A stretch of DNA of 11,563 bases, taken from contig JAUYTF010000266.1 in NCBI GenBank assembly GCA_030695285.1, positions 1 to 11,563 of the forward strand, in the 5' to 3' direction. The translations under genes and the position numbers were made by a program. How positions within the stretch are numbered: the first letter of the stretch is position 1; every line of letters begins with the position of its first letter. The DNA is from Eubacteriales bacterium. GTDB taxonomy: Bacteria; Bacillota; Clostridia; Christensenellales; CAG-138. A model generated the notes under the pieces. It did not search any database, had not been told where the DNA came from, and saw nothing but the letters and a program-made list of their open reading frames with translations. Shown in pieces: positions 1 through 11,563 of the stretch.

Positions 1-375
1 ATGCGCATCGGCGAATGCGAAATATTCGGGCCTGTGCTCTGTATCAAGCGCGTACAGAATTTTAAAGAGGGGCTCGCGCTCATGAACGAGAGCGAGTTTG
101 CAAACGGCTCGGTGATCTTCACACAAAACGGCTACTATGCGCGGGAGTTTTCCAAACGGACACACGGCGGCATGGTTGGGGTCAACGTCGGCATCCCCGT
201 TCCGGCGGGCATGTTCCCGTTCTCCGGACACAAAAACTCGTTCTTTGGCGATCTGCATGTGCTTGGCAAGGACGGTTTGCGATTCTACACGGAGTCCAAG
301 GTGGTCACCACGCGCTGGTTTGACGAGGACGAGCGCAAGCGCTCCAGCGTCGGCACGTGGGACGGCGCGCTGTAA
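1..375 (+). CDS. mmsA: CoA-acylating methylmalonate-semialdehyde dehydrogenase, C-terminal part (5' end outside window)
   Basis: This is the last ~124 residues of an aldehyde dehydrogenase-superfamily protein. The family oxidises malonate or methylmalonate semialdehyde with NAD+ and CoA to acetyl-CoA or propionyl-CoA in the cytosol, at the end of inositol or valine catabolism. The fragment shows the ALDH motif EIFGPVL (residues 8-14 of the fragment), whose Glu contacts the cofactor. It also has the MMSDH-typical stretches GVNVGIPVP and FPFSGHKNSFFGDLH, and the C-terminal YTESKVVTTRWF. The family is about 490 residues long and the catalytic Cys lies upstream, so the ATG at base 1 is almost certainly an internal Met. 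The stop is TAA, 56 bp before the ThDP enzyme gene, which suggests one operon. In B. subtilis the equivalent gene is iolA. Family assignment is firm; the pathway is inferred from neighbours. Confidence 0.9.
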   Translation: MRIGECEIFGPVLCIKRVQNFKEGLALMNESEFANGSVIFTQNGYYAREFSKRTHGGMVGVNVGIPVPAGMFPFSGHKNSFFGDLHVLGKDGLRFYTESKVVTTRWFDEDERKRSSVGTWDGAL

Positions 376-431
376 CAACACAATCCGCATCGACAGGACG
401 GCGCCGCGAGATCGGCGGGAGGTGAAAAGCA

Positions 432-2228
432 ATGAAACGCACAGGCGGACAGATCATCACGGACTATTTGGTGCATGAAGGTGTGCCTTATGCGCTCGGC
501 ATCCCCGGGCACGGCATACTCGGCTTCTTCGACGCGCTGCGTGAAAGCGACACTGCAGGGAAGATCAAATACATACAGGTCAAGCACGAGCAGGCAGCCG
601 TACATATGGCGGACGGGTATTTCCGTGTCAAGGGCGAACCGCTGGCAGTGTTTACCTCCATCGGCCCCGGCGCGCTGAATACCGCGATCGGCCTCGGCAC
701 AGCATATGTGGACTCCACGGCGGTGCTGCAATTCTCGGGCGACACGCATGTGCAGATGAAGGGCGTTGGCGTGCTGCAGGAGATCGAGCGGTATCAGGAC
801 TCCCACTTCATTCGCGCATTGGAGCCGCTTTGCAAGCGCGTCTGGCGCGCGGAGTCGGCGGGGCAGTTGCCGCGCATCCTGCAAAGGTGCTTTAACCAGA
901 TGCTCACGGGCAGAAAAGGCCCGGTCGTGGTCGCGCTGCCGATGAATGTGCAAGCGGAGGCGGTCGAGGTTTCCGAAATCGCGCCGGAACAGCACCGCGC
1001 GCACGCGGCTCCCGCGGGAGACGAGCACGCGATTCGCGAGGCAGTCTCGCTCCTGCGGGAGGCCAGACGCCCCGTCATCCTGCTCGGCGGCGCTGCGCTG
1101 CGCACAGGGGATACAGAGCTGTTTGTGCGCCTTGCGGAGACGCTGGGCGCGGCGGTGGTTACCACCATGGCGGGCAAGAGCGCGTTTCCGGAGGACCATT
1201 TGCTCTACGGATTCCATACGGGATCGAAAGGCACGCCGCCGGGATTGCACCTGACCAGCACCGCAGACGTGATCCTCGCGCTCGGCGCGCGCTTTGCGGA
1301 CGAGACCACGTGCTCCTACCGCGAAGGGGTCGCGTTCTCGATTCCGAAGACGCGGTTGATCCATGTGGACATCGACGCGGGCGAGATCGGCAAAAACTAT
1401 CCCTGCGAGGTAGGCATACTCGGGGATCTTTCACAGGTTTCGCGCCAGATTCTCGCGGTGTACGGCGCGCCGAGGGATTGGAAAAGCGGCGCATATGCGC
1501 GCGAGATCGAGAGAGAATGCGCCAAGTGGCGTGAGACAATCGTAAAAAATCGCGAGCGGACATTCGAGAAGATTACGGTTTCGCAGCTCATCGGCGAGCT
1601 GGAAGCCTGCCTGCCGGAAAACACGATCATCGTAACCTCCTCCGGCAACACGCAGGCGCAGCTTTTTCAGGAATATGCGTTTTGCCGCGGGCAAAGTCAT
1701 CTCACGACGGGTGGATTTTCGACGATGGGATGGGCATTTCCCGCCGCGCTCGGCGCAAAGCTTGCCGCGCCGGAACGCCCGGTCGTGTGTCTGCTCGGCG
1801 ACGGGGATTTCATGATGACCATGCAGGAGCTCGCCACGATGGCGCAGTACGATATTCCTGTTGTGATCGTGCTTGCCAACAACCGCTGCTGGATGGCGAT
1901 TGAGGATCTGCAGCGCGGTGTGCTGGGTGAAGAGCATGCCTTTGGCAACCGCTTTACGCGTGACGAAGAGCCGTATTCGCCGAACTTTGCGCAGATTGCG
2001 CGGAGCTTTGGCATCGCGGCTGAGAAGATCTCCGCGCGCGGCAGCATTGCGGTCGCGATGAATCGCGCGCTTGATTCCGCCAAGCCCGCTCTGATCGAAG
2101 TGGACGTTTACGACCAATATCCAGAATCCGGCGGCGCTGCCTATGGCTGGTGGGATGTTCCGATTCCGGCGCACATGCACGCACGGCGCGCGCAATACGA
2201 GCGTGAAATGGCCGAAGAGACGGTATAG
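432..2228 (+). CDS. ThDP-dependent enzyme of the acetolactate synthase / IolD superfamily
   Basis: A 598-residue thiamine-diphosphate enzyme, cytosolic. The three-domain order is visible. The N-terminal Pyr domain carries the catalytic Glu in KHEQAAVHMADGY (Glu53). A central domain spans about 195-345. The C-terminal PP domain has the Mg/ThDP motif GDGDF (456-460) ending in the NN at 483-484. The ending with GWWDVPIP (572-579) followed by a basic RRAQYE segment recalls IolD, the trihydroxycyclohexane-1,2-dione hydrolase, and related decarboxylase-like enzymes. It is shorter than typical IolD (about 640 residues), and the GIPGHGILGFFDAL start is closer to acetolactate synthase-like proteins. 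The start ATG has an upstream GGGAGGTG. It sits between an MMSDH gene and a sugar isomerase gene, so a C-C cleaving or forming step in polyol or inositol-like catabolism is likely. Acetolactate synthase or another 2-oxoacid enzyme cannot be excluded. Confidence 0.8.
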   Translation: MKRTGGQIITDYLVHEGVPYALGIPGHGILGFFDALRESDTAGKIKYIQVKHEQAAVHMADGYFRVKGEPLAVFTSIGPGALNTAIGLGTAYVDSTAVLQFSGDTHVQMKGVGVLQEIERYQDSHFIRALEPLCKRVWRAESAGQLPRILQRCFNQMLTGRKGPVVVALPMNVQAEAVEVSEIAPEQHRAHAAPAGDEHAIREAVSLLREARRPVILLGGAALRTGDTELFVRLAETLGAAVVTTMAGKSAFPEDHLLYGFHTGSKGTPPGLHLTSTADVILALGARFADETTCSYREGVAFSIPKTRLIHVDIDAGEIGKNYPCEVGILGDLSQVSRQILAVYGAPRDWKSGAYAREIERECAKWRETIVKNRERTFEKITVSQLIGELEACLPENTIIVTSSGNTQAQLFQEYAFCRGQSHLTTGGFSTMGWAFPAALGAKLAAPERPVVCLLGDGDFMMTMQELATMAQYDIPVVIVLANNRCWMAIEDLQRGVLGEEHAFGNRFTRDEEPYSPNFAQIARSFGIAAEKISARGSIAVAMNRALDSAKPALIEVDVYDQYPESGGAAYGWWDVPIPAHMHARRAQYEREMAEETV

Positions 2229-2238
2229 GAGGCTTACT

Positions 2239-2874
2239 ATGCGGATTGCGGTTCTCAACGAAGTCAGCACGCGGGCAAAGAATGCGGACATCCTTGTCGC
2301 GCTCGAAGAGCACGCGGAACACGAGGTATATAACGCCGGCATACGCGCGGAAGGAGACGGGCCGGAGCTGACGTATATTCACACGGGGCTGATGGCAGCG
2401 GTGCTGCTCAACAGCGGCGCGTGCGATTTTATCGTCGGCGGCTGCGGCACGGGGCAGGGGTTTCTCAACAGCGTGATGCAATATCCGTCTGTTTGTTGCG
2501 GGCTGATCATCGATCCGCTCGATGCCTGGCTGTTTTCGCAGATCAACGCGGGCAACTGCATCTCCCTCGCGCTCAACAAGGGCTACGGATGGGCGGGCGA
2601 ACGGAACCTGAAGCTACTTTTTCGCGAACTCTTTCGCGATACGCCGGGCGCGGGCTACCCGCCGCAGCGCAGCGAAAGCCAGGCGCAGAGCAGGGAGCGC
2701 CTGCGGGCGATCTCCCGTGCCGCGCACCGGCCGTTTATCGAGATATTCCGGTCGCTGGATTTGGAGATCGTGCGCCCGCTCAAAGAGTGTGTAGAGTTTC
2801 TTGATCTACTGCGCGGACAGTCAGGCGATGCTGAGACGGCACAGCAGATCATCCGCATGATCGAAAGCCTGTGA
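2239..2874 (+). CDS. RpiB/LacA/LacB-family isomerase, divergent
   Basis: A 211-residue protein of the RpiB/LacAB fold, whose members interconvert aldose and ketose (phosphate) sugars through a catalytic Cys. The signature GGCGTGQG is at residues 67-74 and its Cys69 matches the RpiB active-site Cys. Two things differ from classical RpiB (about 150 residues). The N-terminal DHAG-type motif with the ring-opening His is replaced by NEVS (7-10). There is also a C-terminal extension of about 60 residues (from ~140), rich in Arg and Glu and probably helical. The chosen ATG follows GGAGG that overlaps the preceding TAG (2227-2232), giving a 10-bp gap to the ThDP gene. The longer in-frame extension upstream lies inside that gene and is rejected. 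The substrate is unknown; a sugar acid or 5-deoxyglucuronate-like intermediate would fit the neighbours. Confidence 0.78.
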   Translation: MRIAVLNEVSTRAKNADILVALEEHAEHEVYNAGIRAEGDGPELTYIHTGLMAAVLLNSGACDFIVGGCGTGQGFLNSVMQYPSVCCGLIIDPLDAWLFSQINAGNCISLALNKGYGWAGERNLKLLFRELFRDTPGAGYPPQRSESQAQSRERLRAISRAAHRPFIEIFRSLDLEIVRPLKECVEFLDLLRGQSGDAETAQQIIRMIESL

Positions 2875-2898
2875 AAACGGGCAGGGAGGAGGAATCGC

Positions 2899-3648
2899 AT
2901 GGTACAGTCGCTTGACCGTGGTATTCAGATTCTCTTGATACTCGCCGAGCACAACAGCGCCAGCATCACGGAGCTTGCCGAGGCGCTCGGCGTGGACAAG
3001 AGCACCGCTTCGCGCCTGGCCGAGACGCTCCGTCAGCGTGACATGGTGCGCGTTGACCCCGAGACGAAGAAGTTCCGGCTGGGATTTCGCATTCTGCACC
3101 TCGGCGAGGCGCTCAAGGACAACCTCAACGTGATCGCCATCGCGCGGCCGATGTTGCTTTCGCTCAGCGCGCAGATCAACGAGAGCGTGCATTTCTGCGC
3201 ATATAACAACAACAGCGTCTACGTGATGGATCAGGTGCGCTCAAGCAAAAACTATGCGCTCTCGGCCGCCGTGGGCATGATCGAACCGCTCCACTGCTCC
3301 TCCGTCGGCAAGTGCATCCTCGCATACCGGCGGCCTGAGACCATCCGCGCGCTGCTGGAGGACTACACCTTCACGAAATACACGGAGAAGACCATCGTCT
3401 CAAAGGAGGCGCTACTTGCGCATCTGGAAACCATTCGGCAGGCGGGCTACGCGCTGGACGACGAGGAGATGGCGCCGGGCGTGCTCTGCATCGCTGTTCC
3501 GGTGTACAATTATCGCAACAGCGTGCGATACAGCATCGGCGTTTCCGGCCCGAAAGGGAATTTCAACGCCGCCATGATCGAATCCTACGTCAAGCGCATG
3601 GCGGAGACCACTCGAAAACTCAGCGCGGCCATCGGAAGTACGCGCTGA
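2899..3648 (+). CDS. IclR-family transcriptional regulator
   Basis: A 249-residue cytosolic regulator with the two IclR domains. A winged helix-turn-helix at about 5-62 contains SITELAEALGVDKSTASRL (22-40). A GAF-like effector domain follows from about 75 to 245, with the family signature LHCSSVGKCILA (131-142) and GYALDDEE...GVLCIAVPV (183-202). The ATG is preceded by GGGAGGAGG at good spacing and lies 24 bp after the isomerase stop, so it is probably co-transcribed with the catabolic genes. IclR proteins usually sense a small organic acid or sugar acid of the local pathway and bind a palindromic operator as dimers or tetramers. Here it most likely controls the module starting upstream of the window and perhaps the oxidoreductase gene downstream. 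Effector and mode (activator or repressor) cannot be told. Confidence 0.93.
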   Translation: MVQSLDRGIQILLILAEHNSASITELAEALGVDKSTASRLAETLRQRDMVRVDPETKKFRLGFRILHLGEALKDNLNVIAIARPMLLSLSAQINESVHFCAYNNNSVYVMDQVRSSKNYALSAAVGMIEPLHCSSVGKCILAYRRPETIRALLEDYTFTKYTEKTIVSKEALLAHLETIRQAGYALDDEEMAPGVLCIAVPVYNYRNSVRYSIGVSGPKGNFNAAMIESYVKRMAETTRKLSAAIGSTR

Positions 3649-3755
3649 AACCACACATCTGAACGAACTAAACGAGGTAGCATTGAGAACAGATCCGGTA
3701 CACCCCGTCGAGCTGGTTTCTTTGTGATTTTGAAACATCCGAATCGAGGTGCCAT

Positions 3756-4958
3756 ATGGAACAGATGAAGTTTGTACTAATCGGTTGTGGCCGCATTGCG
3801 ACGCTGCATGTCGCAGGGTATCAAAACCGCGCGGATGCTGTGCTGTGGGGCGTGTATGATAAGAATCCGCAGACAGCAAGACGATTTGCGACAGAACACA
3901 ACATCCCGATGATTTACGACTCGTATGAGGCGGTCTTGTTGGATCAGGAGGTCACGGGCGTCGAGCTGCTGGTGCCGCACCATCTGCATTGTGAGATGAC
4001 GATAGCTGCCTGCCGCGCGAAAAAGCACGTATCCGTGCAAAAGCCCATGGCGCTGTGCCTTTCCGAGTGCGACGAGATGATATTAGCCGCAAAGCAGAAT
4101 GGCGTCGTGCTTAAAGTATTTGAAAATTTTGTGCACTACCCGCCGTATCTGCAGCTCAAGGAGATGATTCGAAACGGCGAGATCGGCGCGATTCTCGGCG
4201 TGCGGTATAAGATGTGCAACGCGTCGCTCTACTCCGAGAACCAGCCCGGCGCGGATGCGCGCGCAAAGATGGCTGGCCTGGAGAAGACTGCGAAGTGCCC
4301 GCACACCGGCTGGAAGGTTGACCCGGCCAGCTGGCTCTGGCGGCTCAATGATTCCCTCTGCGGCGGCGGGCCCGCGGTGTTTGACGACGGGTATCATAAG
4401 TTCTCGCTGTTTATGGATCTTGGCGGCGAAGTTGAAAAGGTTTGTGCCTGGATTGATGAAACGCCTGCTCTGCCGGGCGTGATGCAGGATATGCCGGCTG
4501 TGATCATGTGGAAGTACAAGGACAAAAAGGTGTATGGCGTTTGGGATGTCACCTCCGCGCCCGACCTTTATGTCAAGGGCAAATACTATACCTGCGACGA
4601 ACGGCTGGAGGTTACGGGTACCCGCGGCGTGCTCTGGCTCACGCGCTGCACGGCGGAGATGCTGGAGACAATCGCGCCGGTCGTGCTATACCGGGACGGC
4701 AAGCTCACGGAGTTCTGGGATACGCCGAGCGACTGGCAAGATTCGTTCATCCGCTCGACGCACGATTTCATCGAGGCGATCCGCTACGGGCGGGAGCCCG
4801 TCCTTTCCGGCGAACGCGGACGGGAGGTGCTGGCGTTTGCGCTTGCGGCACTCGCCTCATCCGAGCAGAAGAAGGAGATCTATATCGATAAAATGCTTGA
4901 CCGCAAAAAGAAGAAACCGCGCGGCATACTCTCGATCTTTTTCAGGAAACAAAAGTAA
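3756..4958 (+). CDS. Gfo/Idh/MocA-family NAD(P)-dependent oxidoreductase
   Basis: A 400-residue oxidoreductase. The Rossmann domain starts with VLIGCGRIATLH (7-18, glycine motif GCGRIA). The usual EKP motif is present as QKP at 95-97 (HVSVQKPMAL), keeping the catalytic Lys96. The C-terminal alpha/beta domain carries GGGPAVFDDGYHK (203-215), whose Asp and His214 match the family's second catalytic motif. Members oxidise or reduce a hydroxyl of a sugar, inositol or sugar derivative; the inositol dehydrogenase IolG belongs here. The gene starts 107 bp after the IclR gene with GAGGTG ahead of the ATG. The last ~20 residues are strongly basic (KKKKPRG, then ILSIFFRKQK), a tail not typical of the family. 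It probably belongs to the same catabolic module; substrate unknown. Confidence 0.9.
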   Translation: MEQMKFVLIGCGRIATLHVAGYQNRADAVLWGVYDKNPQTARRFATEHNIPMIYDSYEAVLLDQEVTGVELLVPHHLHCEMTIAACRAKKHVSVQKPMALCLSECDEMILAAKQNGVVLKVFENFVHYPPYLQLKEMIRNGEIGAILGVRYKMCNASLYSENQPGADARAKMAGLEKTAKCPHTGWKVDPASWLWRLNDSLCGGGPAVFDDGYHKFSLFMDLGGEVEKVCAWIDETPALPGVMQDMPAVIMWKYKDKKVYGVWDVTSAPDLYVKGKYYTCDERLEVTGTRGVLWLTRCTAEMLETIAPVVLYRDGKLTEFWDTPSDWQDSFIRSTHDFIEAIRYGREPVLSGERGREVLAFALAALASSEQKKEIYIDKMLDRKKKKPRGILSIFFRKQK

Positions 4959-5342
4959 CGGCGCAAGAGATCAACAAAAGGGGAGTTGCATATCTTCGAA
5001 ATACACAAGCACAACTACACTACGCGTTTGTTGAAAGGGGATTTACATATTAGAGATGAAAGGGACACTTCAACAAAAGCTCTGTTTACGGCTTACCCTG
5101 CTTCACAACTCTCAATGCAAAACACCCCCAAAGTTATTTACGGTTTATCATACTGTCTAACTTTAGGGGTGCAGTTCACAGTCCCGACGCCTTTTTCATC
5201 GCTTCATCGTCACTGCAACCTTGAGATAGCGTTGCTGTTCCGGCGGTTTCGCTCCTCGAATCGGCAATGAATCCGCTCAGCCTGTACTCACCGCATTTTT
5301 GAAACACACTCTGATCATTCGCAATAAAACTTAAGCGATCGG
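4959..5342. other. Intergenic junction between convergent genes, no convincing gene
   Basis: These 384 bases separate the plus-strand oxidoreductase gene from the minus-strand phosphorylase gene. An open frame from a TTG at 4986 (94 codons) has a GGGGAG ahead of it, but its product resembles nothing I recognise. It also runs through a palindrome that looks like an insertion-sequence end, so I do not call it. Besides that palindrome (5122-5178), I see no promoter of good quality. The first convincing terminator for the upstream gene is only at 5345-5368. The stretch is lower in GC than the genes to its left. Confidence 0.6.
5122..5178. repeat. Long imperfect palindrome, possible IS3/IS150-type terminal remnant
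   Basis: Arms 5122-5136 and 5158-5172 pair over 13 of 15 positions (mismatches at 5129/5165 and at the outer end), with a 21-base loop. On the minus strand the outer sequence reads TGAACTGCACCCC, then TAAAGTTAGACAG. From memory this is the style of terminal inverted repeat seen in IS3-family (IS150 group) elements. No transposase fragment is visible beside it, so at most a remnant or solo end remains. Read on the minus strand the second arm is followed by TTTT, so the stem could also work as a weak terminator for the phosphorylase transcript. The hairpin is directly seen; the IS origin is inference without a search. Confidence 0.4.
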
Positions 5343-6800
5343 CTACAGAACGAGCCGTTCTGTTTTTTCACCCTTGCTGTAGCTCACGAGAGCAGTTTTC
5401 GTGAGCAGGTTGATGTGAAGACTGCTCATTTCGGCGCTGTTTGTCCAGATGAGGGTCAGTTCGCTTTCGCTTACGGACTCCACTGCGAACGTCCCTTGAA
5501 AGCTCGGATGTCCGTTCCGAAACCGGATGAGGCGGATGAGACGCTTTACAACATCGCGTTCGAGCGCCGCGTTCACCTCGTCGACAGAGTAATTATAGCG
5601 ATTGATTTCGCGGCCATCTCCGGACTGCGCTGCGCACTGATACTGATTCGTGCCCGCAAGTAATCCCACATAGTATACCTGCGGGACGCCAGGCGTGAAC
5701 AACTGTATCGCTCTGGCGATGATATAATCATCGTCGTTTTCATTTAACACGGAATAAATCGTGCCTCGAATCTGGTGCACATCAAAGCCGTTGGCGCTTT
5801 TATGTGAGTTTGAATATACTTTGCTGACATTACAACCCCGGCTTAAACAGATGTCTACGATTTTTTGCGCGGCGTCAGGATCGACCAGCCCGTTTAAATC
5901 GGGCATGATCGGCAACCCGTCATGGCAGTCCAGCATCGTGACCTGATTCGCCGGGCGTTCGGTCAAATATCGAGCAAGAGAATCGAATCGCACGAGCATG
6001 ATCGCTTCGACGATTCGATAAGGCAGGATGAAGTCGTAGATCCAGTATCCTCTGGACGCAAGCGCATACTGGAAGTGATAATCGGCATGCACCTCCGGTA
6101 GAAGCGTGAGATGGTATTTTTCGGCCAAGGCGGAGATCCAATCCAGAAACTCATAGATTTCCGGTTCCAGAAAGAAACAGGAGGTGCCGGCTTTTTTATT
6201 CACATACCCGACCGCGTCCAGACGCACGGTTTTTACGCCTGATTCGCTGAAGTTGCGTAACACATCTTCGAACATCTTCTTTGCAATATCCGAGTGGATA
6301 TCGACGTCGATCTGCTCGGAAGGGTCTGTTTTGCCAAAGGTCGTCCAGACACGTACCGGACCGTGACCCTTGCGCTGGTATTCGGAGTAAGGTAGCGTGC
6401 GCCTTAAGAAAATGCGATCGATGTCGCTTTGAACCGGGACGCCGTCACTCCAAACTTTGGAAAGGGTGATAAACAAGTCCGCATACGCCGAATCCGGGCC
6501 TTTCTTGAGATAGTCCTGAAATTGCTCGGATTGTCTGGAGATATGGTTCACCATCAGATCGACCAAGATATCGTGGCTTCGGCCGATCGACTCCAGATCG
6601 CTCCACTCACCGAATGCAGGGTCGATTTCAAGATAGGTCAGCGGCGCAAATCCTCTGTCTCCCGACGAGGGGAACGGGGGAAGTATGTGGACACCGCCAT
6701 CAAAAAGGCCGCTCAACGGACCTTCCAGAACGTTTCTGAGCTCCTTCAGGCTACGCCCTAACGAATTCGGATATGTGATGAGCTGCACTTTGTTTTTCAC
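5343..6800 (-). CDS. gtfA: GH13_18 phosphorylase: sucrose 6F-phosphate phosphorylase (or sucrose phosphorylase)
   Basis: A 485-residue cytosolic retaining glycoside phosphorylase, full length for the family and closely similar to Bifidobacterium sucrose phosphorylase from MKNKVQLITY onward. Visible catalytic residues are Asp195 (nucleophile, in TVRLDAVGY), Glu236 (acid/base, in LLPEVHADY), Asp294 (stabiliser, in DCHDG) and Arg397 (in GREINR). It splits its alpha-glucoside with phosphate to glucose 1-phosphate plus acceptor. At the acceptor loops it has Arg133-Arg134 where the Bifidobacterium enzyme has Pro134-Arg135. It also has His342 (FDVHQ) where that enzyme has Tyr344. From memory both are marks of sucrose 6F-phosphate phosphorylases. 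The start is GTG at 6800 with AAAGGT upstream, 33 bp after the kinase stop, so the two form an operon. Glucosylglycerate or glucosylglycerol phosphorylase is less likely. Confidence 0.88.
   Translation of the reverse strand: MKNKVQLITYPNSLGRSLKELRNVLEGPLSGLFDGGVHILPPFPSSGDRGFAPLTYLEIDPAFGEWSDLESIGRSHDILVDLMVNHISRQSEQFQDYLKKGPDSAYADLFITLSKVWSDGVPVQSDIDRIFLRRTLPYSEYQRKGHGPVRVWTTFGKTDPSEQIDVDIHSDIAKKMFEDVLRNFSESGVKTVRLDAVGYVNKKAGTSCFFLEPEIYEFLDWISALAEKYHLTLLPEVHADYHFQYALASRGYWIYDFILPYRIVEAIMLVRFDSLARYLTERPANQVTMLDCHDGLPIMPDLNGLVDPDAAQKIVDICLSRGCNVSKVYSNSHKSANGFDVHQIRGTIYSVLNENDDDYIIARAIQLFTPGVPQVYYVGLLAGTNQYQCAAQSGDGREINRYNYSVDEVNAALERDVVKRLIRLIRFRNGHPSFQGTFAVESVSESELTLIWTNSAEMSSLHINLLTKTALVSYSKGEKTERLVL
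5345..5368 (+). terminator. Rho-independent terminator-like hairpin overlapping the convergent stop codon
   Basis: ACAGAACG (5345-5352) pairs perfectly with CGTTCTGT (5356-5363) around a 3-base loop, followed by five further Ts (5364-5368). Oriented for plus-strand transcription, it would stop read-through from the oxidoreductase gene before it becomes antisense to the phosphorylase gene. The hairpin lies within the last codons and stop of that minus-strand gene. Read on the minus strand the hairpin has no T tract after it. Confidence 0.55.
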
Positions 6801-6833
6801 AGTTTGACCTTTCCCGCAATGAACGGTAATTCG

Positions 6834-7496
6834 TTAGTGGATGCTATCGTCCGGAAACATGACATCATAATCTTTCATAATGATGATGTCGGCCAAGTAA
6901 CGAAATCCGGCAATGATTTTATGCTCCGTTTTCAAGATATCCTCGATAAAAGGATCACCGGCTTCGGTGCCGCGACTTCTTTTATTGCGGTGCTCGAGCG
7001 TATCCAATCGATTTCTGGCAATGAAGACCCGGCAATTTACATGGCGAAGCAAGGCGGTATACGTTCCTTCGATGATAACGACCCGCACCCCGTCGAGGGG
7101 CACGATCTCCTGCGCAATAGTGTCCTTTGCATAATCGACGAGCGGTTTTGTAAGTTTGTTTGCACCTTGCAGCGCATCTCGAATCTGCTGATTCAGCAGA
7201 TCCATCTCAACTTCGACATCCGGCCCCAGCCATGCGTCATCTTCCCTTCGTTTCAAGTCGTTTGAAACGGGCGGTAACTTGAAATAATCGTCCTGCCCCA
7301 ATACGATGGATGAGATCTGATGGCGTGCAAATTCATCGCCGATTGCTTTCGCAGTCTCGGTTTTGCCGCTACCAGATTCGCCTGAAATGGTTATGATATA
7401 ACGATCAGTCTGCGATACATCTGGAAGTATGCGGGCTACAATTTTTCGGCTAGCATCAATATGATGCTTTTCAATAATAAGAATATCGCCTTTCAT
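6834..7496 (-). CDS. Uridine kinase-like P-loop kinase, candidate free-standing sucrose kinase
   Basis: A 220-residue P-loop NTPase of the uridine kinase/phosphoribulokinase type. The Walker A is GESGSGKT (39-46). A substrate-side GQDDYF lies at 67-72, and a Walker B-like strand VVIIEGTYT at 139-147. An Arg-rich lid region (RNRLDTLEHRNKRSRGTEAG) is at 161-180. The start ATG has AAGGAGC six bases upstream. It is the first gene of a two-gene operon with the phosphorylase. Established precedent: in Ruminococcus gnavus, AgaSK fuses an alpha-galactosidase to a sucrose kinase domain next to a GH13_18 enzyme acting on sucrose 6F-phosphate. I infer that this protein is the same kinase activity as a separate polypeptide, making sucrose 6F-phosphate from imported sucrose and ATP. 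Other possibilities are a kinase for the released acceptor (fructose or glycerate) or a true uridine kinase; the context argues against the last. Confidence 0.75.
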   Translation of the reverse strand: MKGDILIIEKHHIDASRKIVARILPDVSQTDRYIITISGESGSGKTETAKAIGDEFARHQISSIVLGQDDYFKLPPVSNDLKRREDDAWLGPDVEVEMDLLNQQIRDALQGANKLTKPLVDYAKDTIAQEIVPLDGVRVVIIEGTYTALLRHVNCRVFIARNRLDTLEHRNKRSRGTEAGDPFIEDILKTEHKIIAGFRYLADIIIMKDYDVMFPDDSIH

Positions 7497-7528
7497 ACAT
7501 GCTCCTTACTGGTGAATATGACACGTAC

Positions 7529-7557
7529 AGTATATCCACCATAATTTACGATGTCAA
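7529..7557 (-). promoter_or_regulatory. Sigma-A type promoter of the kinase-phosphorylase operon
   Basis: On the minus strand TTGACA (7557-7552) is followed after exactly 17 bases by TATACT (7534-7529). Transcription would begin near 7522, about 25 bases before the kinase start. The -35 is a perfect consensus and forms one half of the operator palindrome at 7551-7568. Confidence 0.85.
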
Positions 7558-7568
7558 CCGGATGACAT
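7551..7568. promoter_or_regulatory. LacI-type operator O1 over the kinase promoter
   Basis: ATGTCAACCGGATGACAT is an 18-bp palindrome with 16 symmetric positions and a central CG, the typical shape of LacI-family operators. Its TGACAT half overlaps no gene, and its other half is the -35 of the minus promoter. On the minus strand it differs at one of 16 core positions from the site at 7724-7739. Binding would block polymerase directly. Confidence 0.75.
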
Positions 7569-7722
7569 GCAAAATTTTACATTCCACCGCCATGTTTGCC
7601 GTCGGATGCAACACAGCAGAAAGCGAATGATCCGACTTTACAAAGAAATGAGCCATTTGATTACCAGCAAAATGATCTCACTGATCACTGCGAAAATGAA
7701 GGAATGGTGGCGATTTTTACCA

Positions 7723-7740
7723 TTGTCATGCGGTTGACAC
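7723..7740. promoter_or_regulatory. LacI-type operator O2 over the regulator's own promoter
   Basis: TTGTCATGCGGTTGACAC contains the inverted half-sites TGTCA and TGACA with a 6-base spacer. The core (7724-7739) matches O1, read on the minus strand, at 15 of 16 positions. The right half is the -35 of the plus-strand promoter, suggesting that the LacI-type regulator represses itself. Confidence 0.72.
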
Positions 7741-7762
7741 CTCTCGCGAACGGTGATATATT
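7734..7762 (+). promoter_or_regulatory. Sigma-A type promoter of the LacI-family gene
   Basis: TTGACA (7734-7739), a 17-base spacer and TATATT (7757-7762) give a near-perfect promoter. The start would be near 7769 with a leader of about 30 bases containing AGGAGA (7783-7788). It is divergent from the kinase promoter; the ~165 bases between the two operators show nothing else I can name. Confidence 0.85.
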
Positions 7763-7797
7763 CATCACAGTTCAATATTTTTAGGAGAAAGTAACAT

Positions 7798-8772
7798 ATG
7801 GCAACACTCATCGATGTCGCCGAGAGAGCAGGGGTCTCGGTTACCACGGTTTCTAGAATGCTGAACAATCGTGTTCCTATTAGTCCTGCAACACGCGAAA
7901 GCATTATCAAAGCGATGGAAGATCTGGATTATCAGCCGAATGAGCTGGCTCGTTCGCTGTTTAAGAAAAACAGCCTAATGATTGGCCTGATCATTGCGTC
8001 TGCGAATAATTATTTCTTTTGCAAGATCATTGACAGCGTTGAACATTATGTGACGAAGCATGGATACAAGTTGCTTCTCTGCCTGTCCAACAATAAAAAA
8101 CAGAATGAAATCGCTTACTTTAATATGCTCAAAGCAAACCAGGTCGCCGGCGTAATCCTTGCGAGCAATACGCAGAACCTCGAACGGTACCTGAGCTTCA
8201 ACGCGCCGCTGGTTACTTTTGACAGAATGCTTTCGCCGCATATCCCTTCGGTCAGTTCTGACAACTATAATGGCGGCGTGCTGGCGGCAAAGCACTTGCT
8301 GGAAAAAGGTTGCAAGCGCCCGGCGTACGTGATGGACACGCGTCGCATGGGAATGCACGCGAATTACCGATATGATGGATTTGCCGACACCTTTAAAAAA
8401 AGCGGCATCGATCTGGTTGTGCACGCGGCTCCACTCGATAGCTTCATCACTATGAGTTATGAAGATACCATCCGAGAGTTTTTTCAAACCCATCCGGAGA
8501 TAGACTGCGTTTTCACATCCAACGATATCATCGCCGCGCAGATCCTGCGGTATTGTGCCAGACAAGGCATATCTGTGCCCGGGCAGCTCAAAGTCATCGG
8601 GTATGACGATATTGATATGGCGAGTTTCACCTCGCCTTCCTTGACAACGATCCGCCAGCCCGTTGACGATTTGTGCAGATACGCAGTAGAGAGCCTCATC
8701 AACTTCAAGGAACGGAACATCGCCAGTATGACTTTGTTTCCCGTATCGCTCATTGAGCGGGAGAGCACCTGA
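7798..8772 (+). CDS. LacI-family transcriptional repressor
   Basis: A 324-residue DNA-binding regulator. The N-terminal helix-turn-helix is TLIDVAERAGVSVTTVSRML (3-22). A hinge helix at about 47-58 contains NELARSL, whose Leu normally inserts at a central CG step of the operator. A periplasmic-binding-protein-like sensor domain then runs to the end, with TSNDIIA (240-246), VIGYDDID (267-274 region) and SLTTIRQP (281-288). Length is slightly short but normal. Start: ATG with AGGAGA upstream. It lies between the divergent kinase-phosphorylase operon and the transporter genes, and near-identical operators sit on the first two promoters with a weaker one on the third. I infer that it represses the whole module and itself. 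Inducer is unknown; sucrose, fructose 6-phosphate or sucrose 6F-phosphate would fit. Confidence 0.93.
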   Translation: MATLIDVAERAGVSVTTVSRMLNNRVPISPATRESIIKAMEDLDYQPNELARSLFKKNSLMIGLIIASANNYFFCKIIDSVEHYVTKHGYKLLLCLSNNKKQNEIAYFNMLKANQVAGVILASNTQNLERYLSFNAPLVTFDRMLSPHIPSVSSDNYNGGVLAAKHLLEKGCKRPAYVMDTRRMGMHANYRYDGFADTFKKSGIDLVVHAAPLDSFITMSYEDTIREFFQTHPEIDCVFTSNDIIAAQILRYCARQGISVPGQLKVIGYDDIDMASFTSPSLTTIRQPVDDLCRYAVESLINFKERNIASMTLFPVSLIEREST

Positions 8773-8827
8773 AAAATCATCGGAATCGATGCCATATAGA
8801 CGTAAGCGGCCAAAGATTTGACGAACG

Positions 8828-8862
8828 GATGACATCTGGTGGATAGGTGCCGTCTTTTTTTT
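8828..8862 (+). terminator. Intrinsic terminator after the LacI-family gene
   Basis: GATGACATC (8828-8836) pairs with GGTGCCGTC (8846-8854) in eight of nine positions, including two G-T pairs and one A-C mismatch, around a 9-base loop. Eight Ts follow directly (8855-8862). It begins about 55 bases after the stop and separates regulator and transporter transcripts. Confidence 0.7.
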
Positions 8863-8958
8863 GTCGATAAAACACAAAAGAAGCACCTTGTGTCAATTAC
8901 TGTTAGAATAATAGCAGAGCATTTAGACAAAAGTTGACAAATATATAACAAATCGGCA

Positions 8959-8974
8959 TGACAAGGGGTTGACA
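8959..8974 (+). promoter_or_regulatory. Degenerate LacI-type operator O3 over the transporter promoter
   Basis: TGACAAGGGGTTGACA matches the O2 core at 13 of 16 positions. The right half, TTGACA, is again the -35 element, in the same register as O1 and O2. The left half is TGACA instead of TGTCA, so the site is less symmetric and probably weaker. Confidence 0.5.
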
Positions 8975-8997
8975 TCGATACTTTGCTGTAATAGTAT
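8969..8997 (+). promoter_or_regulatory. Promoter of the ABC transporter operon
   Basis: TTGACA (8969-8974), 17-base spacer, TAGTAT (8992-8997). The -35 is consensus and the -10 matches 4 of 6. Start would be near 9004, giving a leader of about 60 bases before the binding-protein gene. A second TTGACA at 8934-8939 has no matching -10. Confidence 0.7.
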
Positions 8998-9063
8998 GGA
9001 ATTGTGTCAATCATGTGAGGGTCTCAGTTCGTATGATTCACAAATACTTTTCAGGAGGGAACT

Positions 9064-10407
9064 ATGAAAAAAATAAGAACTATCGCGACGATCTTAGCAG
9101 TTCTCATGGCCGTAATGCTCGCAACCGCATGTGCAGCACCGGCACCGGCACCCGTTACCCCGGAAGAACCTGCCAGCGAAGCAACGCAGGCGCCTGCTGC
9201 AACCGTAGATCCGAATGCAAAAGTTAGCATCATCATCGCCAATGGCAAAGGCGAACTAACAGCGAAGTATCAGGCCGCGGTTGACGCGTTTAGCCTGGAA
9301 TACCCGAACATCCAGATCGAACAATATACTGGCGCGGTCGGCGATCCGGTCAGCATCTTGGACAAACTGATGGCCTCCGGCACAGTCGTGTCGTTGGCGA
9401 TGCTCGAGCCGGGCTCGGTCGACACCAAGTACGCCGATTTCAACAAGGTTGATCTTTCCGGCGAAGCTTGGGTGGATGACACCGTGTTCGCGTTCAAAGA
9501 TGCCAGCGGTGCAACGGTCGGCTTCCCCTTCGCCATTGAAGGGTTCGGCCTGATCTACAACGCTGCGGTTGTGGATAACGCGGTCGGCGGTGCTTTTGAT
9601 CCCTGGTCGATCAATTCCCGCGACAAGCTGATTGAACTGCTCGGCAAGATCAAGGCGTCCGGCGTAGAATTCCCGATCGCTTATCAGACGGAAGCCTGGT
9701 CCGTGGGCAACCACTACAGCTCGATGTTCCTGAATCAGGCGGATGATCCGGCTTCGGTTGTCAAGCAGATGACCGAAGGCTCGTTTGACCTTGCTGGCAA
9801 CGCAACATGGAACGGTTACTATGAGACCATGTCGTTGCTCGCATCCAGGGATTACAACAAATACGGTGAGCGCCCGCTTGGCTCCTACTATGACGATGCG
9901 CACGTCTCCGTCGGCAAAGGCGATAGTGCCATTCTTTTCAACGGCAACTGGGCGTTTGACTCCTTCCAGGCTGTTAGCGGCGAGAAGTTCGGCTTCATGC
10001 CGGTACCGGTAGACAATGACCCGGCGAACCCGCTGAACAACAAGATCTGCGTCGGCCCGACGCAGCTCTATGTCATCAATGCGGATGCCTCGCCCGAACA
10101 GCAGGCGGCAGCGAAGCTGTTCCTCAACTGGCTGGTTGAAAGCGATTATGGCAAGAATTGGCTCGTCAATGACTGCCAGGTCATCTCCGCCTTCGCCAAC
10201 AACCCGAATAAAGTAACCAACCCGCTCGGCGGCGCAATTGCGGAAGCGATCGCACAGGGTCGCACCATGCCGTTTACAACCAACTATGTCAATGGCGCAG
10301 ATTACTTCAACCTCCTCGGGCCTGAAGTGCAGAAGTTCATCGATCAGAAGATCACTCTGTCAGATTTGGCCACTGTCTTTACAGACTACTATAAGAGCCT
10401 AGGCTGA
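9064..10407 (+). CDS. ABC transporter sugar-binding lipoprotein (family 1 extracellular solute-binding protein)
   Basis: A 447-residue substrate-binding protein. A basic N-terminus (MKKIR), a hydrophobic segment and a lipobox-like LATAC place the lipidated Cys at position 23, followed by an Ala/Pro/Glu-rich linker (24-52) and the two-lobed binding domain. Motifs of carbohydrate-binding members are visible, such as FPFAIEGFGLIYNAAV (about 157-173) and AILFNGNWAFDSF near residue 300. It would sit on the outer face of the membrane and deliver sugar to the two permeases encoded next. The start has a strong CAGGAGGGA seven bases upstream. The lipobox is slightly off the usual L-x-x-C register because Leu is at -4. 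Substrate is inferred as sucrose or a sucrose-containing oligosaccharide from the neighbouring phosphorylase. Confidence 0.92.
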   Translation: MKKIRTIATILAVLMAVMLATACAAPAPAPVTPEEPASEATQAPAATVDPNAKVSIIIANGKGELTAKYQAAVDAFSLEYPNIQIEQYTGAVGDPVSILDKLMASGTVVSLAMLEPGSVDTKYADFNKVDLSGEAWVDDTVFAFKDASGATVGFPFAIEGFGLIYNAAVVDNAVGGAFDPWSINSRDKLIELLGKIKASGVEFPIAYQTEAWSVGNHYSSMFLNQADDPASVVKQMTEGSFDLAGNATWNGYYETMSLLASRDYNKYGERPLGSYYDDAHVSVGKGDSAILFNGNWAFDSFQAVSGEKFGFMPVPVDNDPANPLNNKICVGPTQLYVINADASPEQQAAAKLFLNWLVESDYGKNWLVNDCQVISAFANNPNKVTNPLGGAIAEAIAQGRTMPFTTNYVNGADYFNLLGPEVQKFIDQKITLSDLATVFTDYYKSLG

Positions 10408-10429
10408 CGCCTTCCCCGTCGGCAGGCAT

Positions 10430-10463
10430 CGATGGGATGGGCAGGAAACTGCTCATCCCATCG
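10430..10463 (+). promoter_or_regulatory. Stable intercistronic stem-loop with GAAA tetraloop
   Basis: Bases 10430-10444 pair with 10449-10463 over 15 consecutive positions (one G-T pair) around the tetraloop GAAA. It starts 22 bases after the binding-protein stop. No T tract follows immediately; the nearest T-rich bases begin near 10481. It is therefore more likely an mRNA-stabilising or partial-termination element, giving more binding protein than permease, than a full terminator. Confidence 0.75.
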
Positions 10464-10526
10464 CTTCCATATTCACGTCACTTTTCTTCATTTTTGGCTG
10501 GAAATTCATATGGAGGGGTAAGCTTT

Positions 10527-11408
10527 GTGAAAAAAAAGCATTTAGCGAGCAAGGTTGGCAATCAGCTATTTTTCACGACACCAACGATCATTGTCTTTGC
10601 GTTTACAGTGCTGATTCCGTTTGCCTACGGCCTGTATCTGACGTTTATGAACATGCCCAATATCTCCAGCACACTAACATTTAACGGAATTGAGAATTAC
10701 ATCACGGCATTTCGCGATGTGAAATTTTGGAAAGCACTATTGCTGACCGTACGATATGTTCTCGCCTGCGTCATCTTGGTCAATGTGCTGGGCTTTGGCC
10801 TCGGCTATCTTGTGACATCCGGCTTACGCGGGCAAAATTTCTTTCGCTCTGCGCTGTTTACGCCAAACATGATCGGCGGTCTGGTCATGGGCTATATCTG
10901 GCAATTCATTTTTGTGCAGAGCCTGCCGACGATCGGACGGCAGCTCGGCATCGAAATACTCCGTTTGGGATGGCTTGGCGATGCGACGCTTGCATTCCTT
11001 GCGATGGTCATTGTCACGATCTGGCAGATGAGTGGATATATGATGCTGATATTCATCGCGGGGTTCGTGTCGCTGCCGAAAGATGTTCTGGAAGCAGCTT
11101 CAATTGACGGGGCAAACGGCTGGAAGCGGATGCGATATGTGACGCTGCCACTAATGACGCCATCTTTCGTGATTACGTTCTTTTTGACACTTCGAAATTG
11201 CTTCATGGTCTACGACATCAACTACAGCCTGACCGGCGGTGGCCCATATCAAAGCACCCAGATGGTTTCCATGTATATCGTCCAGAAGGCGTTTATGGAA
11301 AGCAAGTTTGCTGTCGGGCAGGCGGAAGCGGTCATCCTGTTTGTCGTCGTCGCCGTGATATCGCTCATACAGGTCAGTATCGGAAAGAAGAGAGAGGTGG
11401 ATGCATGA
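10527..11408 (+). CDS. ABC transporter sugar permease, MalF/UgpA type
   Basis: A 293-residue inner membrane protein with about six hydrophobic segments (roughly residues 17-40, 70-95, 107-130, 153-180, 208-227, 266-284). The cytoplasmic EAA loop EAASIDGANGWKRMRYVTLP (189-208) docks with the ABC ATPase. SLTGGGPYQST near 234-244 is typical of MalF/UgpA-type permeases. I chose the GTG at 10527 because GGAGGGG lies about ten bases upstream and the protein then begins MKKKHL. The in-frame ATG at 10437 lies inside the stem-loop and has no ribosome site. The stop overlaps the next start. It forms a heterodimer with the following permease. Confidence 0.92.
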   Translation: MKKKHLASKVGNQLFFTTPTIIVFAFTVLIPFAYGLYLTFMNMPNISSTLTFNGIENYITAFRDVKFWKALLLTVRYVLACVILVNVLGFGLGYLVTSGLRGQNFFRSALFTPNMIGGLVMGYIWQFIFVQSLPTIGRQLGIEILRLGWLGDATLAFLAMVIVTIWQMSGYMMLIFIAGFVSLPKDVLEAASIDGANGWKRMRYVTLPLMTPSFVITFFLTLRNCFMVYDINYSLTGGGPYQSTQMVSMYIVQKAFMESKFAVGQAEAVILFVVVAVISLIQVSIGKKREVDA

Positions 11409-11563
11409 TGAATAAAAAACTCAACATTGGGAAGCCGTTGATCTATCTCTTCTTGTCGGCAGCCGTTTTGATGTATATCTTCCCGTTCGTTCTGATCATT
11501 TTGAATTCATTTAAGAGCAATGGTGAAATTCTCGAAAATCCATTTTCTCTTCCGAAAACGTTA
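11405..11563 (+). CDS. Second ABC sugar permease, MalG/UgpE type (3' end outside window)
   Basis: The first 53 codons of a permease are present, starting with two Met codons. The ATG at 11405 overlaps the preceding TGA in an ATGA junction; 11408 is the alternative start. GAGAGGTGG lies upstream. One transmembrane segment (YLFLSAAVLMYIFPFVLIIL, about 14-33) is followed by NSFKSNGEI and NPFSLPKTL, the usual beginning of MalG/UgpE-type permeases. The overlap indicates translational coupling with the first permease. Confidence 0.9.
   Translation, partial: MMNKKLNIGKPLIYLFLSAAVLMYIFPFVLIILNSFKSNGEILENPFSLPKTL

What the first reader, a model, noticed from the sequence alone, without database searches (positions are those of the whole stretch)
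5343..7496. Free-standing sucrose-kinase candidate paired with a GH13_18 phosphorylase
The sequence shows a small uridine-kinase-like P-loop protein in an operon with a sucrose-phosphorylase homologue, and a nearby ABC importer instead of a PTS. Known precedent: R. gnavus AgaSK carries a sucrose kinase domain fused to an alpha-galactosidase and works with a sucrose 6F-phosphate phosphorylase. Here the kinase appears as a separate protein. Proposed route: ABC import of sucrose, phosphorylation, then phosphorolysis to glucose 1-phosphate and fructose 6-phosphate, at a cost of one ATP for two phosphorylated hexoses, excluding transport. I infer the substrate; the gene pairing is seen.
Basis: partly seen in the sequence, partly recalled or inferred. 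Interest (0 to 1): 0.72.

Follow-up and report, generated by a model that had tools for sequence, protein, structure and literature searches.

The report
Sucrose kinase paired with phosphorylase
A bacterium that seems to lack the usual sugar-phosphorylating uptake system carries a small kinase gene next to an enzyme that splits phosphorylated sucrose, and relatives of this kinase sit beside sucrose and other disaccharide enzymes in many bacterial phyla, which suggests how such bacteria make their phosphorylated sucrose.

Summary
The pair is real: a 220-aa P-loop kinase (7496-6834, minus) ends 33 bp before a GH13_18 phosphorylase (6800-5343, minus). The kinase is not a uridine kinase (52 bits, cut-off 220); it lies in a 100/99-supported clade of six, all beside SPP or SPP-like genes. 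Among 23 GH13_18 genes found without using the kinase, 8 of 10 SPP-type genes have a kinase of this superfamily directly upstream, 0 of 13 others. The genome shows no PTS enzyme I over cut-off; LacI, binding protein and permease resemble those around TtSPP-type genes. Best reading: ABC-imported sucrose is phosphorylated on fructose C6, then phosphorolysed to Glc1P and Fru6P. Substrate and position are inferred; the one characterised relative, AgaSK, is reported to phosphorylate glucose C6, which would not fit SPP. A free-standing sucrose-kinase gene is already in print (Clostridium sp. L2-50). New here: this separate lineage, its TtSPP-type partner, and a wider family beside SPS-like, GH65-betaPGM, GH100-like and unclassified GH13-like genes.

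The parts
6834..7496 (-). P-loop kinase, 220 aa, candidate sucrose 6F-kinase; Walker A at residues 39-45 (GESGSGK)
5343..6800 (-). GH13_18 phosphorylase, TtSPP type; loop A ANGFDVHQI; TtSPP R134, R195, D197, Y201, E238, D296, H344, Q345 and R399 all kept
6801..6833 (-). 33-bp gap between kinase stop and phosphorylase start
7529..7557 (-). sigma-70-like site before the kinase-phosphorylase pair, TTGACA-17-TATACT, 11 of 12
   Evidence: 14 such sites found in 4950-11563, 8.1 expected in shuffles
7734..7762 (+). sigma-70-like site before the LacI gene, TTGACA-17-TATATT, 11 of 12
7798..8772 (+). LacI-family regulator, divergent; 45-46% identical to the LacI next to the TtSPP-type gene of L112/L113, 70% to the one in L122
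8969..8997 (+). sigma-70-like site before the binding-protein gene, TTGACA-17-TAGTAT, 10 of 12
9064..10407 (+). ABC importer substrate-binding protein; 34-36% identical to those of the L112/L113 SPP clusters; no Pfam match at E 0.01
10437..11408 (+). ABC importer permease 1 (PF00528); 50-51% identical to those of L112/L113
11411..11563 (+). start of permease 2, cut by the contig end

Best explanation
The two genes form a sucrose-catabolic module. Sucrose enters through the ABC importer encoded beside them (inferred). The kinase transfers phosphate from ATP to C6 of the fructosyl unit of sucrose, giving sucrose 6F-phosphate (inferred). The TtSPP-type phosphorylase splits it with inorganic phosphate into glucose 1-phosphate and fructose 6-phosphate (published for its 56%-identical relative, inferred here). 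Phosphoglucomutase and glycolysis take the products. LacI controls the module (inferred). The kinase is a lineage of the PRK-fold P-loop kinases that is related to the AgaSK sucrose-kinase domain and separate from uridine kinases. It stands in for the PTS, whose enzyme I was not found in the assembled genome.
For: SPP identity: best solved structure 6s9v, sucrose 6F-phosphate phosphorylase, 614 bits against 416 for the next; all nine tested positions and GFDVHQ kept, against the published signatures (PMC7178133, PMC6720575; passages). Pairing tracks SPP type: in the two genome searches with the phosphorylase alone (398 and 201 genomes), 8 of 10 SPP-type genes have a kinase of this superfamily 2-83 bp upstream, and 0 of 13 other GH13_18 genes have one in the flank held (Fisher p 9e-5, rows not independent; ten of the 13 have 1.5 kb or so on each side, L141 and L142 are short contigs). 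Tree: window kinase in a 100/99 clade of six from the window's order, Bacteroidota and Chloroflexota, all beside SPP or (L056, cut before loop A) SPP-like genes; seven uridine-kinase-like rows apart at 100/100. Profiles: an HMM of four AgaSK-type kinases gives the 22 window-group kinases a median of 80 bits, against at most 18.2 for 16 PRK/uridine-kinase-like proteins. Other members sit beside SPS-like GT4 genes (11 of 58 loci); sucrose 6F-phosphate is the product of SPS. The L058 partner matches 2r60 (named only as a group-1 glycosyltransferase in the output; H. orenii SPS by recall) at 487 bits against 104 for sucrose synthase. L061 encodes such a GT4 fused to sucrose-6F-phosphate phosphohydrolase (PF05116, 251 bits), then kinase, then an SPP-like gene. 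No PTS enzyme I over cut-off. LacI, binding protein and permease resemble those of the L112/L113 clusters.
Against: No activity was measured. The only characterised relative, R. gnavus AgaSK, is reported to phosphorylate C6 of glucose (PMC7688924 introduction); that product would not suit SPP. TtSPP is promiscuous and also splits sucrose (PMC7178133), so its window relative could run without a kinase. AgaSK-type kinases are a separate clade on a long branch, 29% identical to the window kinase. The two SPP-type genes of L112/L113 have PfkB-family kinases instead. SPS identity of the GT4 partners is uneven: TIGR02472 is the top NCBIfam model for L058 and L066 but below its cut-off (273 and 239 of 576), and for L034 the MshA model scores slightly higher (212 against 204). 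The own genome has a GH32 enzyme elsewhere, so sucrose can also be hydrolysed, and six PfkB-family ORFs over cut-off could include a fructokinase. The genome is 93.8% complete, so a missing enzyme I is not proof.
Confidence: 0.71

Rival explanations
1. The kinase is a fructokinase (or general hexokinase). The phosphorylase splits free sucrose, and the kinase rescues the released fructose; in other loci it would serve sucrose synthase, invertase or GH65 phosphorylases in the same way.
For: TtSPP also acts on sucrose (PMC7178133). GH100-like (7 of 58 loci) and GH65 (25 of 58) partners release free hexoses if they act on unphosphorylated sugars. A putative fructose-transport kinase, 3c8u, is among the fold matches (rank 21). 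Stoichiometry is the same.
Against: Kinase adjacency goes with SPP-type and not with SP-type GH13_18 (8 of 10 against 0 of 13 non-SPP, eight of them SP-type), including the KxxYYQ type, whose two characterised members are strict for sucrose 6F-phosphate (PMC7178133). The GT4 partner of L058 is SPS-type, not sucrose-synthase-type. The R. gnavus kinase domain was shown to phosphorylate sucrose (PMC7688924). L053 has a separate ROK-family protein between its two P-loop kinases.
Confidence: 0.14
2. The kinase phosphorylates sucrose on C6 of glucose, as reported for AgaSK. The product goes to a GH32 hydrolase, and the neighbouring phosphorylase serves another supply of sucrose 6F-phosphate or free sucrose.
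For: Reported AgaSK regiochemistry; a GH32 gene in the genome at C10.
Against: GH32 is on another contig with no kinase or phosphorylase hit on it (L125). Tandem kinase-SPP pairs recur with two kinase lineages and two SPP types, and members sit beside SPS-like genes, SPS making the 6F isomer.
Confidence: 0.08
3. The pair acts on another fructosyl or glucosyl glycoside phosphate (for example a sucrose analogue, or a deacylated sucrose ester; esterase-like genes flank the pairs of relatives).
For: Esterase-like genes next to the pairs in L138, L139 and L123 (family named by eye); TtSPP is promiscuous (PMC6720575).
Against: All six published fructose-6-phosphate contacts of TtSPP are kept.
Confidence: 0.07

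Closest known systems
R. gnavus AgaSK (GH36 alpha-galactosidase fused to sucrose kinase) with RgSPP; Rgaga1 locus (PMC6521584, PMC7688924)
   Same: Related kinase domain, directly upstream of an SPP gene, ABC importer in the locus. The Agathobacter rectalis locus of this layout (L050) was read here.
   Different: Window kinase is free-standing, 29% identical to the L050 kinase domain, in another clade; no GH36; phosphorylase is of the other SPP type (GFDVHQ, not KxxYYQ). AgaSK is reported to phosphorylate glucose C6.
Separate sucrose-kinase gene of Clostridium sp. L2-50 (WP_008399817.1, named in PMC7688924)
   Same: Kinase gene separate from GH36 in a locus syntenic with Rgaga1; so a free-standing sucrose-kinase gene is already in print.
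   Different: It sits with a separate GH36 gene. Its sequence was not obtained here; L111 has the same arrangement (GH36-sized gene by eye, kinase, SPP).
Thermoanaerobacterium thermosaccharolyticum TtSPP cluster (EC 2.4.1.329)
   Same: Phosphorylase 56% identical; in L112/L113 (phosphorylases 92% identical to TtSPP) LacI, binding protein and permease are related to the window's (45-46, 34-36 and 50-51%).
   Different: In L112/L113 GH32 and two PfkB-type kinases stand in place of the P-loop kinase, and the nearby PTS gene is mannitol-type. The T. thermosaccharolyticum genome itself was not seen.
Uridine kinase Udk (TIGR00235) and other PRK-fold kinases
   Same: PRK/PanK/UCK fold (Foldseek: pantothenate kinases first, uridine-cytidine kinase at rank 19).
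   Different: 52 bits against a cut-off of 220.3; apart in the tree at 100/100.
Trehalose 6-phosphate phosphorylase/beta-phosphoglucomutase route of Lactococcus (PMC7608592, listing only)
   Same: Logic of splitting a phosphorylated disaccharide, with betaPGM.
   Different: In Lactococcus the phosphate comes from the PTS (recalled); here clade II P-loop kinases stand next to a GH65-betaPGM fusion.

Membership tests
GH13_18, TtSPP-type sucrose 6F-phosphate phosphorylase | GH13_18 family score (TIGR03852) | tested here: met
   458.6 bits, cut-off 334.4
GH13_18, TtSPP-type sucrose 6F-phosphate phosphorylase | GFDVHQ motif in loop A | tested here: met
   ANGFDVHQI; motif as given in PMC7178133
GH13_18, TtSPP-type sucrose 6F-phosphate phosphorylase | Arg134 and His344 that bind the phosphate; Arg195, Tyr201, Gln345, Arg399; catalytic Asp197, Glu238, Asp296 | tested here: met
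   9 of 9 kept
GH13_18, TtSPP-type sucrose 6F-phosphate phosphorylase | Preference for sucrose 6F-phosphate over sucrose | not testable with these tools
   needs enzyme assay
AgaSK-type sucrose kinase | Sequence kinship with the AgaSK kinase domain beyond that of uridine kinases | tested here: met
   AgaSK-type HMM: window kinase 85.9 bits; E. coli Udk 16.3
AgaSK-type sucrose kinase | Falls inside the AgaSK-type clade | tested here: not met
   AgaSK-type rows form their own 100/99 clade of 6; window is in another clade
AgaSK-type sucrose kinase | Fusion to GH36 | tested here: not met
   free-standing 220 aa; five of the six AgaSK-clade kinases in the tree are also free-standing
AgaSK-type sucrose kinase | ATP-dependent phosphorylation of sucrose | not testable with these tools
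   needs enzyme assay
Uridine kinase (TIGR00235) | Curated cut-off 220.3 bits | tested here: not met
   52.2 bits
Uridine kinase (TIGR00235) | Groups with Udk in a tree | tested here: not met
   7 Udk-like rows separated at 100/100 from 51 others
PRK-fold P-loop kinase superfamily (PF00485) | Pfam cut-off 22 bits, Walker A, PRK-type fold | tested here: met
   31.7 bits; GESGSGK; model pLDDT 92.3 matches PanK and UCK
PTS-dependent sucrose uptake | PTS enzyme I in the genome | tested here: not met
   47.8 bits against 341.7 in a 93.8%-complete assembly

The most novel reading that the evidence does not exclude
The window kinase belongs to a widespread, largely unassigned superfamily of cytoplasmic disaccharide kinases, found next to enzymes that make or split phosphorylated disaccharides: SPP phosphorylases of both types, SPS-like enzymes used in the reverse (catabolic) direction, a GH65-betaPGM fusion (trehalose or a related 6-phosphate), GH100-like enzymes and an unclassified GH13-like enzyme. 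These bacteria would do with ATP and a soluble kinase what others do with the PTS, and this would answer where SPPs get sucrose 6F-phosphate.
Probability: 0.44. Interest if true: 0.78.

Novelty: new variant of a known kind. Interest (0 to 1): 0.62.

Why it matters
The source of sucrose 6F-phosphate for SPPs is an open point in the literature read here: a PTS or an unknown source is proposed (PMC7178133, passages), and the one assayed kinase is said to give the other isomer (PMC7688924, passages). The recurrent kinase-SPP tandems make this testable with two purified proteins per locus. If the wider family holds, it would give functions to genes that score only as PRK or uridine-kinase-like, and would show a PTS-free way of trapping and phosphorolysing disaccharides.

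Tried and rejected
Uridine-kinase reading: rejected on curated cut-off, HMM scores and tree. Structure of the GH13-like c14 protein: low confidence (pLDDT 56.9), not used for any claim. A shared 11-mer GGTTGACATCG at the kinase promoter (7549-7559) and the binding-protein promoter (8967-8977) was seen by eye; it overlaps the -35 hexamers, was not tested against shuffles, and is not used as evidence of co-regulation. The simple gene caller missed kinase genes in several loci, and its clusters mix in some antisense ORFs; adjacency was recounted by tblastn.
Full report
The observation. A LacI gene points the other way, followed by a binding protein, a permease and the cut start of a second permease. 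The window is the whole contig C309 of an unnamed 2.54-Mb, 515-contig genome, 93.8% complete. Its phylum holds genomes with phosphorylases 92% identical to TtSPP, so it is probably Bacillota in the broad sense.

The phosphorylase. Its best solved relative is 6s9v, named sucrose 6(F)-phosphate phosphorylase, at 614 bits; the next, a sucrose phosphorylase, has 416. Reviews read in passages give GFDVHQ as the loop A signature of TtSPP, N(L/V)D(I/L/V)YQ for sucrose phosphorylase and KXXYYQ for the strict SPPs (PMC7178133), and list the fructose-6-phosphate contacts of TtSPP (PMC6720575). In my alignment the window has GFDVHQ and 9 of 9 of the tested contact and catalytic residues. It is therefore of the TtSPP type, which is promiscuous, and not of the R. 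gnavus type.

The kinase. It reaches the Pfam PRK cut-off (31.7 against 22) but not that of uridine kinase (52.2 against 220.3). Against 72,556 plasmid records tblastn finds two matches: a Gemmatirosa megaplasmid and the C-terminal part of an Agathobacter rectalis alpha-galactosidase gene, which lies in a locus laid out like R. gnavus AgaSK. In 398 genomes of the phylum only the own genome (482 bits) and G160 (124 bits) score above 39 bits. An HMM from four AgaSK-type kinases scores the 22 window-group kinases at 52-102 bits (median 80) and 13 of 16 PRK/uridine-kinase-like proteins at 8.8-18.2, the other three giving no hit; the reverse HMM scores AgaSK-type kinases at 96-114 and the uridine-kinase-like ones at up to 66. 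In a 58-row tree the seven uridine-kinase-like rows are one side at 100/100. The window kinase is in a clade of six at 100/99 (window, L122, L123, L052, L053, L056), all beside SPP or SPP-like genes. The AgaSK-type kinases are a separate 100/99 clade on a long branch. The predicted fold (pLDDT 92.3) resembles pantothenate and uridine-cytidine kinases.

Does the kinase go with the SPP specificity? To avoid bias I took the GH13_18 genes found by searching genomes with the phosphorylase alone: 14 of 398 genomes in the phylum sample and 6 of 201 relatives, 23 different genes in all (24 rows, the window's gene being listed twice). Ten are SPP-type by loop A: the window, G566 C118 and G542 (GFDVHQ, kinase upstream), G120 and G365 (GFDVHQ, PfkB-type kinase instead), and G142, G316, G575, G399 C1 and G401 (YYQ, AgaSK-clade kinase upstream). 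So 8 of 10 have a kinase of this superfamily directly upstream. Of the other 13 (eight SP-type, five of other loops) none has one in the flank held (Fisher p 9e-5). The rows are related to each other and most flanks of the 13 are short, so the p-value is only indicative. G399 and G401 belong to the window's own genus: they have an AgaSK-type kinase with a KxxYYQ phosphorylase, where the window species has the other kinase with the other phosphorylase type. L052 combines the window-type kinase with a YYQ phosphorylase, and L061 combines it with an SPP-like gene cut by the contig end before loop A. On the tree the label 'SPP next' needs three changes, gains or losses.

The setting. In L112 and L113, whose phosphorylases are 92% identical to TtSPP, the cluster reads binding protein, two permeases, GH32 (TIGR01322 over cut-off), two PfkB-type kinases (below their cut-offs), SPP, LacI (permeases by eye and by similarity). 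The window's LacI, binding protein and permease are related to these (45-46, 34-36, 50-51%). The PTS gene that follows there is mannitol-type (mtlA models over cut-off, mannitol-1-phosphate dehydrogenase over cut-off), so in these relatives the nearby PTS is no obvious source of phosphorylated sucrose; I did not see the T. thermosaccharolyticum genome itself. The window's genome has no PTS enzyme I over cut-off, three PGM-family genes, a GH32 gene and six PfkB-family ORFs.

The wider family. Within 1 kb of the kinase, 50 of 58 have one of five kinds of partner: GH13_18 in 4, SPS-like GT4 in 11 (L061 has both), GH65 in 25, an unclassified GH13-like protein (c14) in 4, GH100-like in 7. Of the 8 without, two kinases are cut by the contig end, one lies at the end of a 3.3-kb contig, one has GH65 at 2.2 kb, and four have none of the five. 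These partner classes were defined from the loci themselves, so this is a description and not a test. The GT4 of L058 matches 2r60 at 487 bits against 104 for sucrose synthase; that of L066 is more distant (155 bits to 2r60, 184 to 6kih, 89 to sucrose synthase). No GT4 tested reached the SPS model's cut-off, and L034's scores MshA slightly higher. The GH65-betaPGM partner of L053 matches a chain named trehalose-6-phosphate hydrolase best (526 bits; kojibiose phosphorylase 329). L053 holds both systems: GH65-betaPGM with a clade II kinase, and the window-type kinase with a GFDVHQ SPP.

Mechanism and its weak point. Shown: gene pairing, type of phosphorylase by sequence, kinship of the kinase, no PTS enzyme I over cut-off in the assembly. 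Inferred: sucrose as substrate, fructosyl C6 as target, ABC import, regulation. The main contrary evidence is published: the introduction of PMC7688924 states that AgaSK phosphorylates C6 of glucose whereas RgSPP acts on the 6F isomer. Either the isomer assignment needs a second look, or the kinases differ, or the pairs are not one pathway. I favour the first two because SPP and SPS share the 6F isomer. Cost: one ATP per sucrose for two phosphorylated hexoses, the same as sucrose phosphorylase plus fructokinase.

Prior art. 12 of 5.39 million papers hold 'sucrose kinase' or 'sucrose 6-phosphate phosphorylase'. PMC6521584 (abstract, section 21 and passages) reports the SPP-kinase link in gut Clostridia and PFK beside TtSPP; PMC7688924 (passages) names the separate sucrose-kinase gene of Clostridium sp. 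L2-50 and shows the isolated R. gnavus kinase domain to phosphorylate sucrose. Searches for trehalose, maltose or disaccharide kinase (20 of 32 listed), for sucrose 6F-phosphate (25 of 44 listed), and (2 of 2; 4 of 4; 15 of 50; 11 of 11) listed no paper whose title or start of abstract describes the window-type kinases or the SPS/GH65/GH100 pairings; beyond the papers named I saw listings only.

Noticed in passing
L054 9438-11531, L059 6723-8801, L057 10651-12714, L104 10651-12720: A ~690-aa GH13-like protein directly behind the kinase in 4 of 58 loci, with no Pfam match at E 0.01 for the two tested so (L059, L104) and a weak hit of L054 to a maltodextrin glycosyltransferase (23.5 bits); putative catalytic motifs by eye. 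Perhaps a new sucrose-phosphate-splitting enzyme.
   Followed up: partly
L077-L108 (25 of 58 loci with GH65 within 1 kb): A second kinase clade next to a GH65-betaPGM fusion, in nine loci with two tandem kinase paralogues; best structural relative of the GH65 part of L053 is named trehalose-6-phosphate hydrolase. Candidate trehalose kinases.
   Followed up: partly
L112 6964-7950 and 11009-16257, L113: The PTS gene next to the TtSPP-type cluster belongs to a mannitol operon (mtlA, a regulator-like gene by eye, mtlD), and a PfkB-family gene overlaps the start of SPP; that PfkB protein could itself be the sucrose kinase there.
   Followed up: partly
L058, L062, L064, L067, L069: Near the kinase-SPS-like pairs lie genes of one cluster with the GlgC-like gene of L058; L058 also has a DUF4922 gene. 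Perhaps SPS run backwards into ADP-glucose.
   Followed up: no
L073 4176-5978, L076 1481-3328: Kinase domain in one open frame behind a GH100-like domain (600 and 615 aa), another kind of fusion besides AgaSK.
   Followed up: partly
L138 4199-5311, L139 3927-5051, L123 5353-6537: Esterase-like genes (family judged by eye) flank the kinase-SPP pairs in congeners and relatives; perhaps an acylated sucrose is the natural substrate.
   Followed up: no
L140 7207-8670 (G399), L141, L142 (G566): GH13_18 genes with loop A SGK(Q/K)AQRYQL, fitting none of the published specificity motifs read here.
   Followed up: no
window 1-4958: Unrelated plus-strand cluster: aldehyde dehydrogenase end, TPP enzyme below the cut-off of each of the 25 NCBIfam models shown (IolD 294 of 715), RpiB-like, IclR regulator, Gfo/Idh oxidoreductase; perhaps an inositol- or sugar-acid-type pathway.
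   Followed up: no
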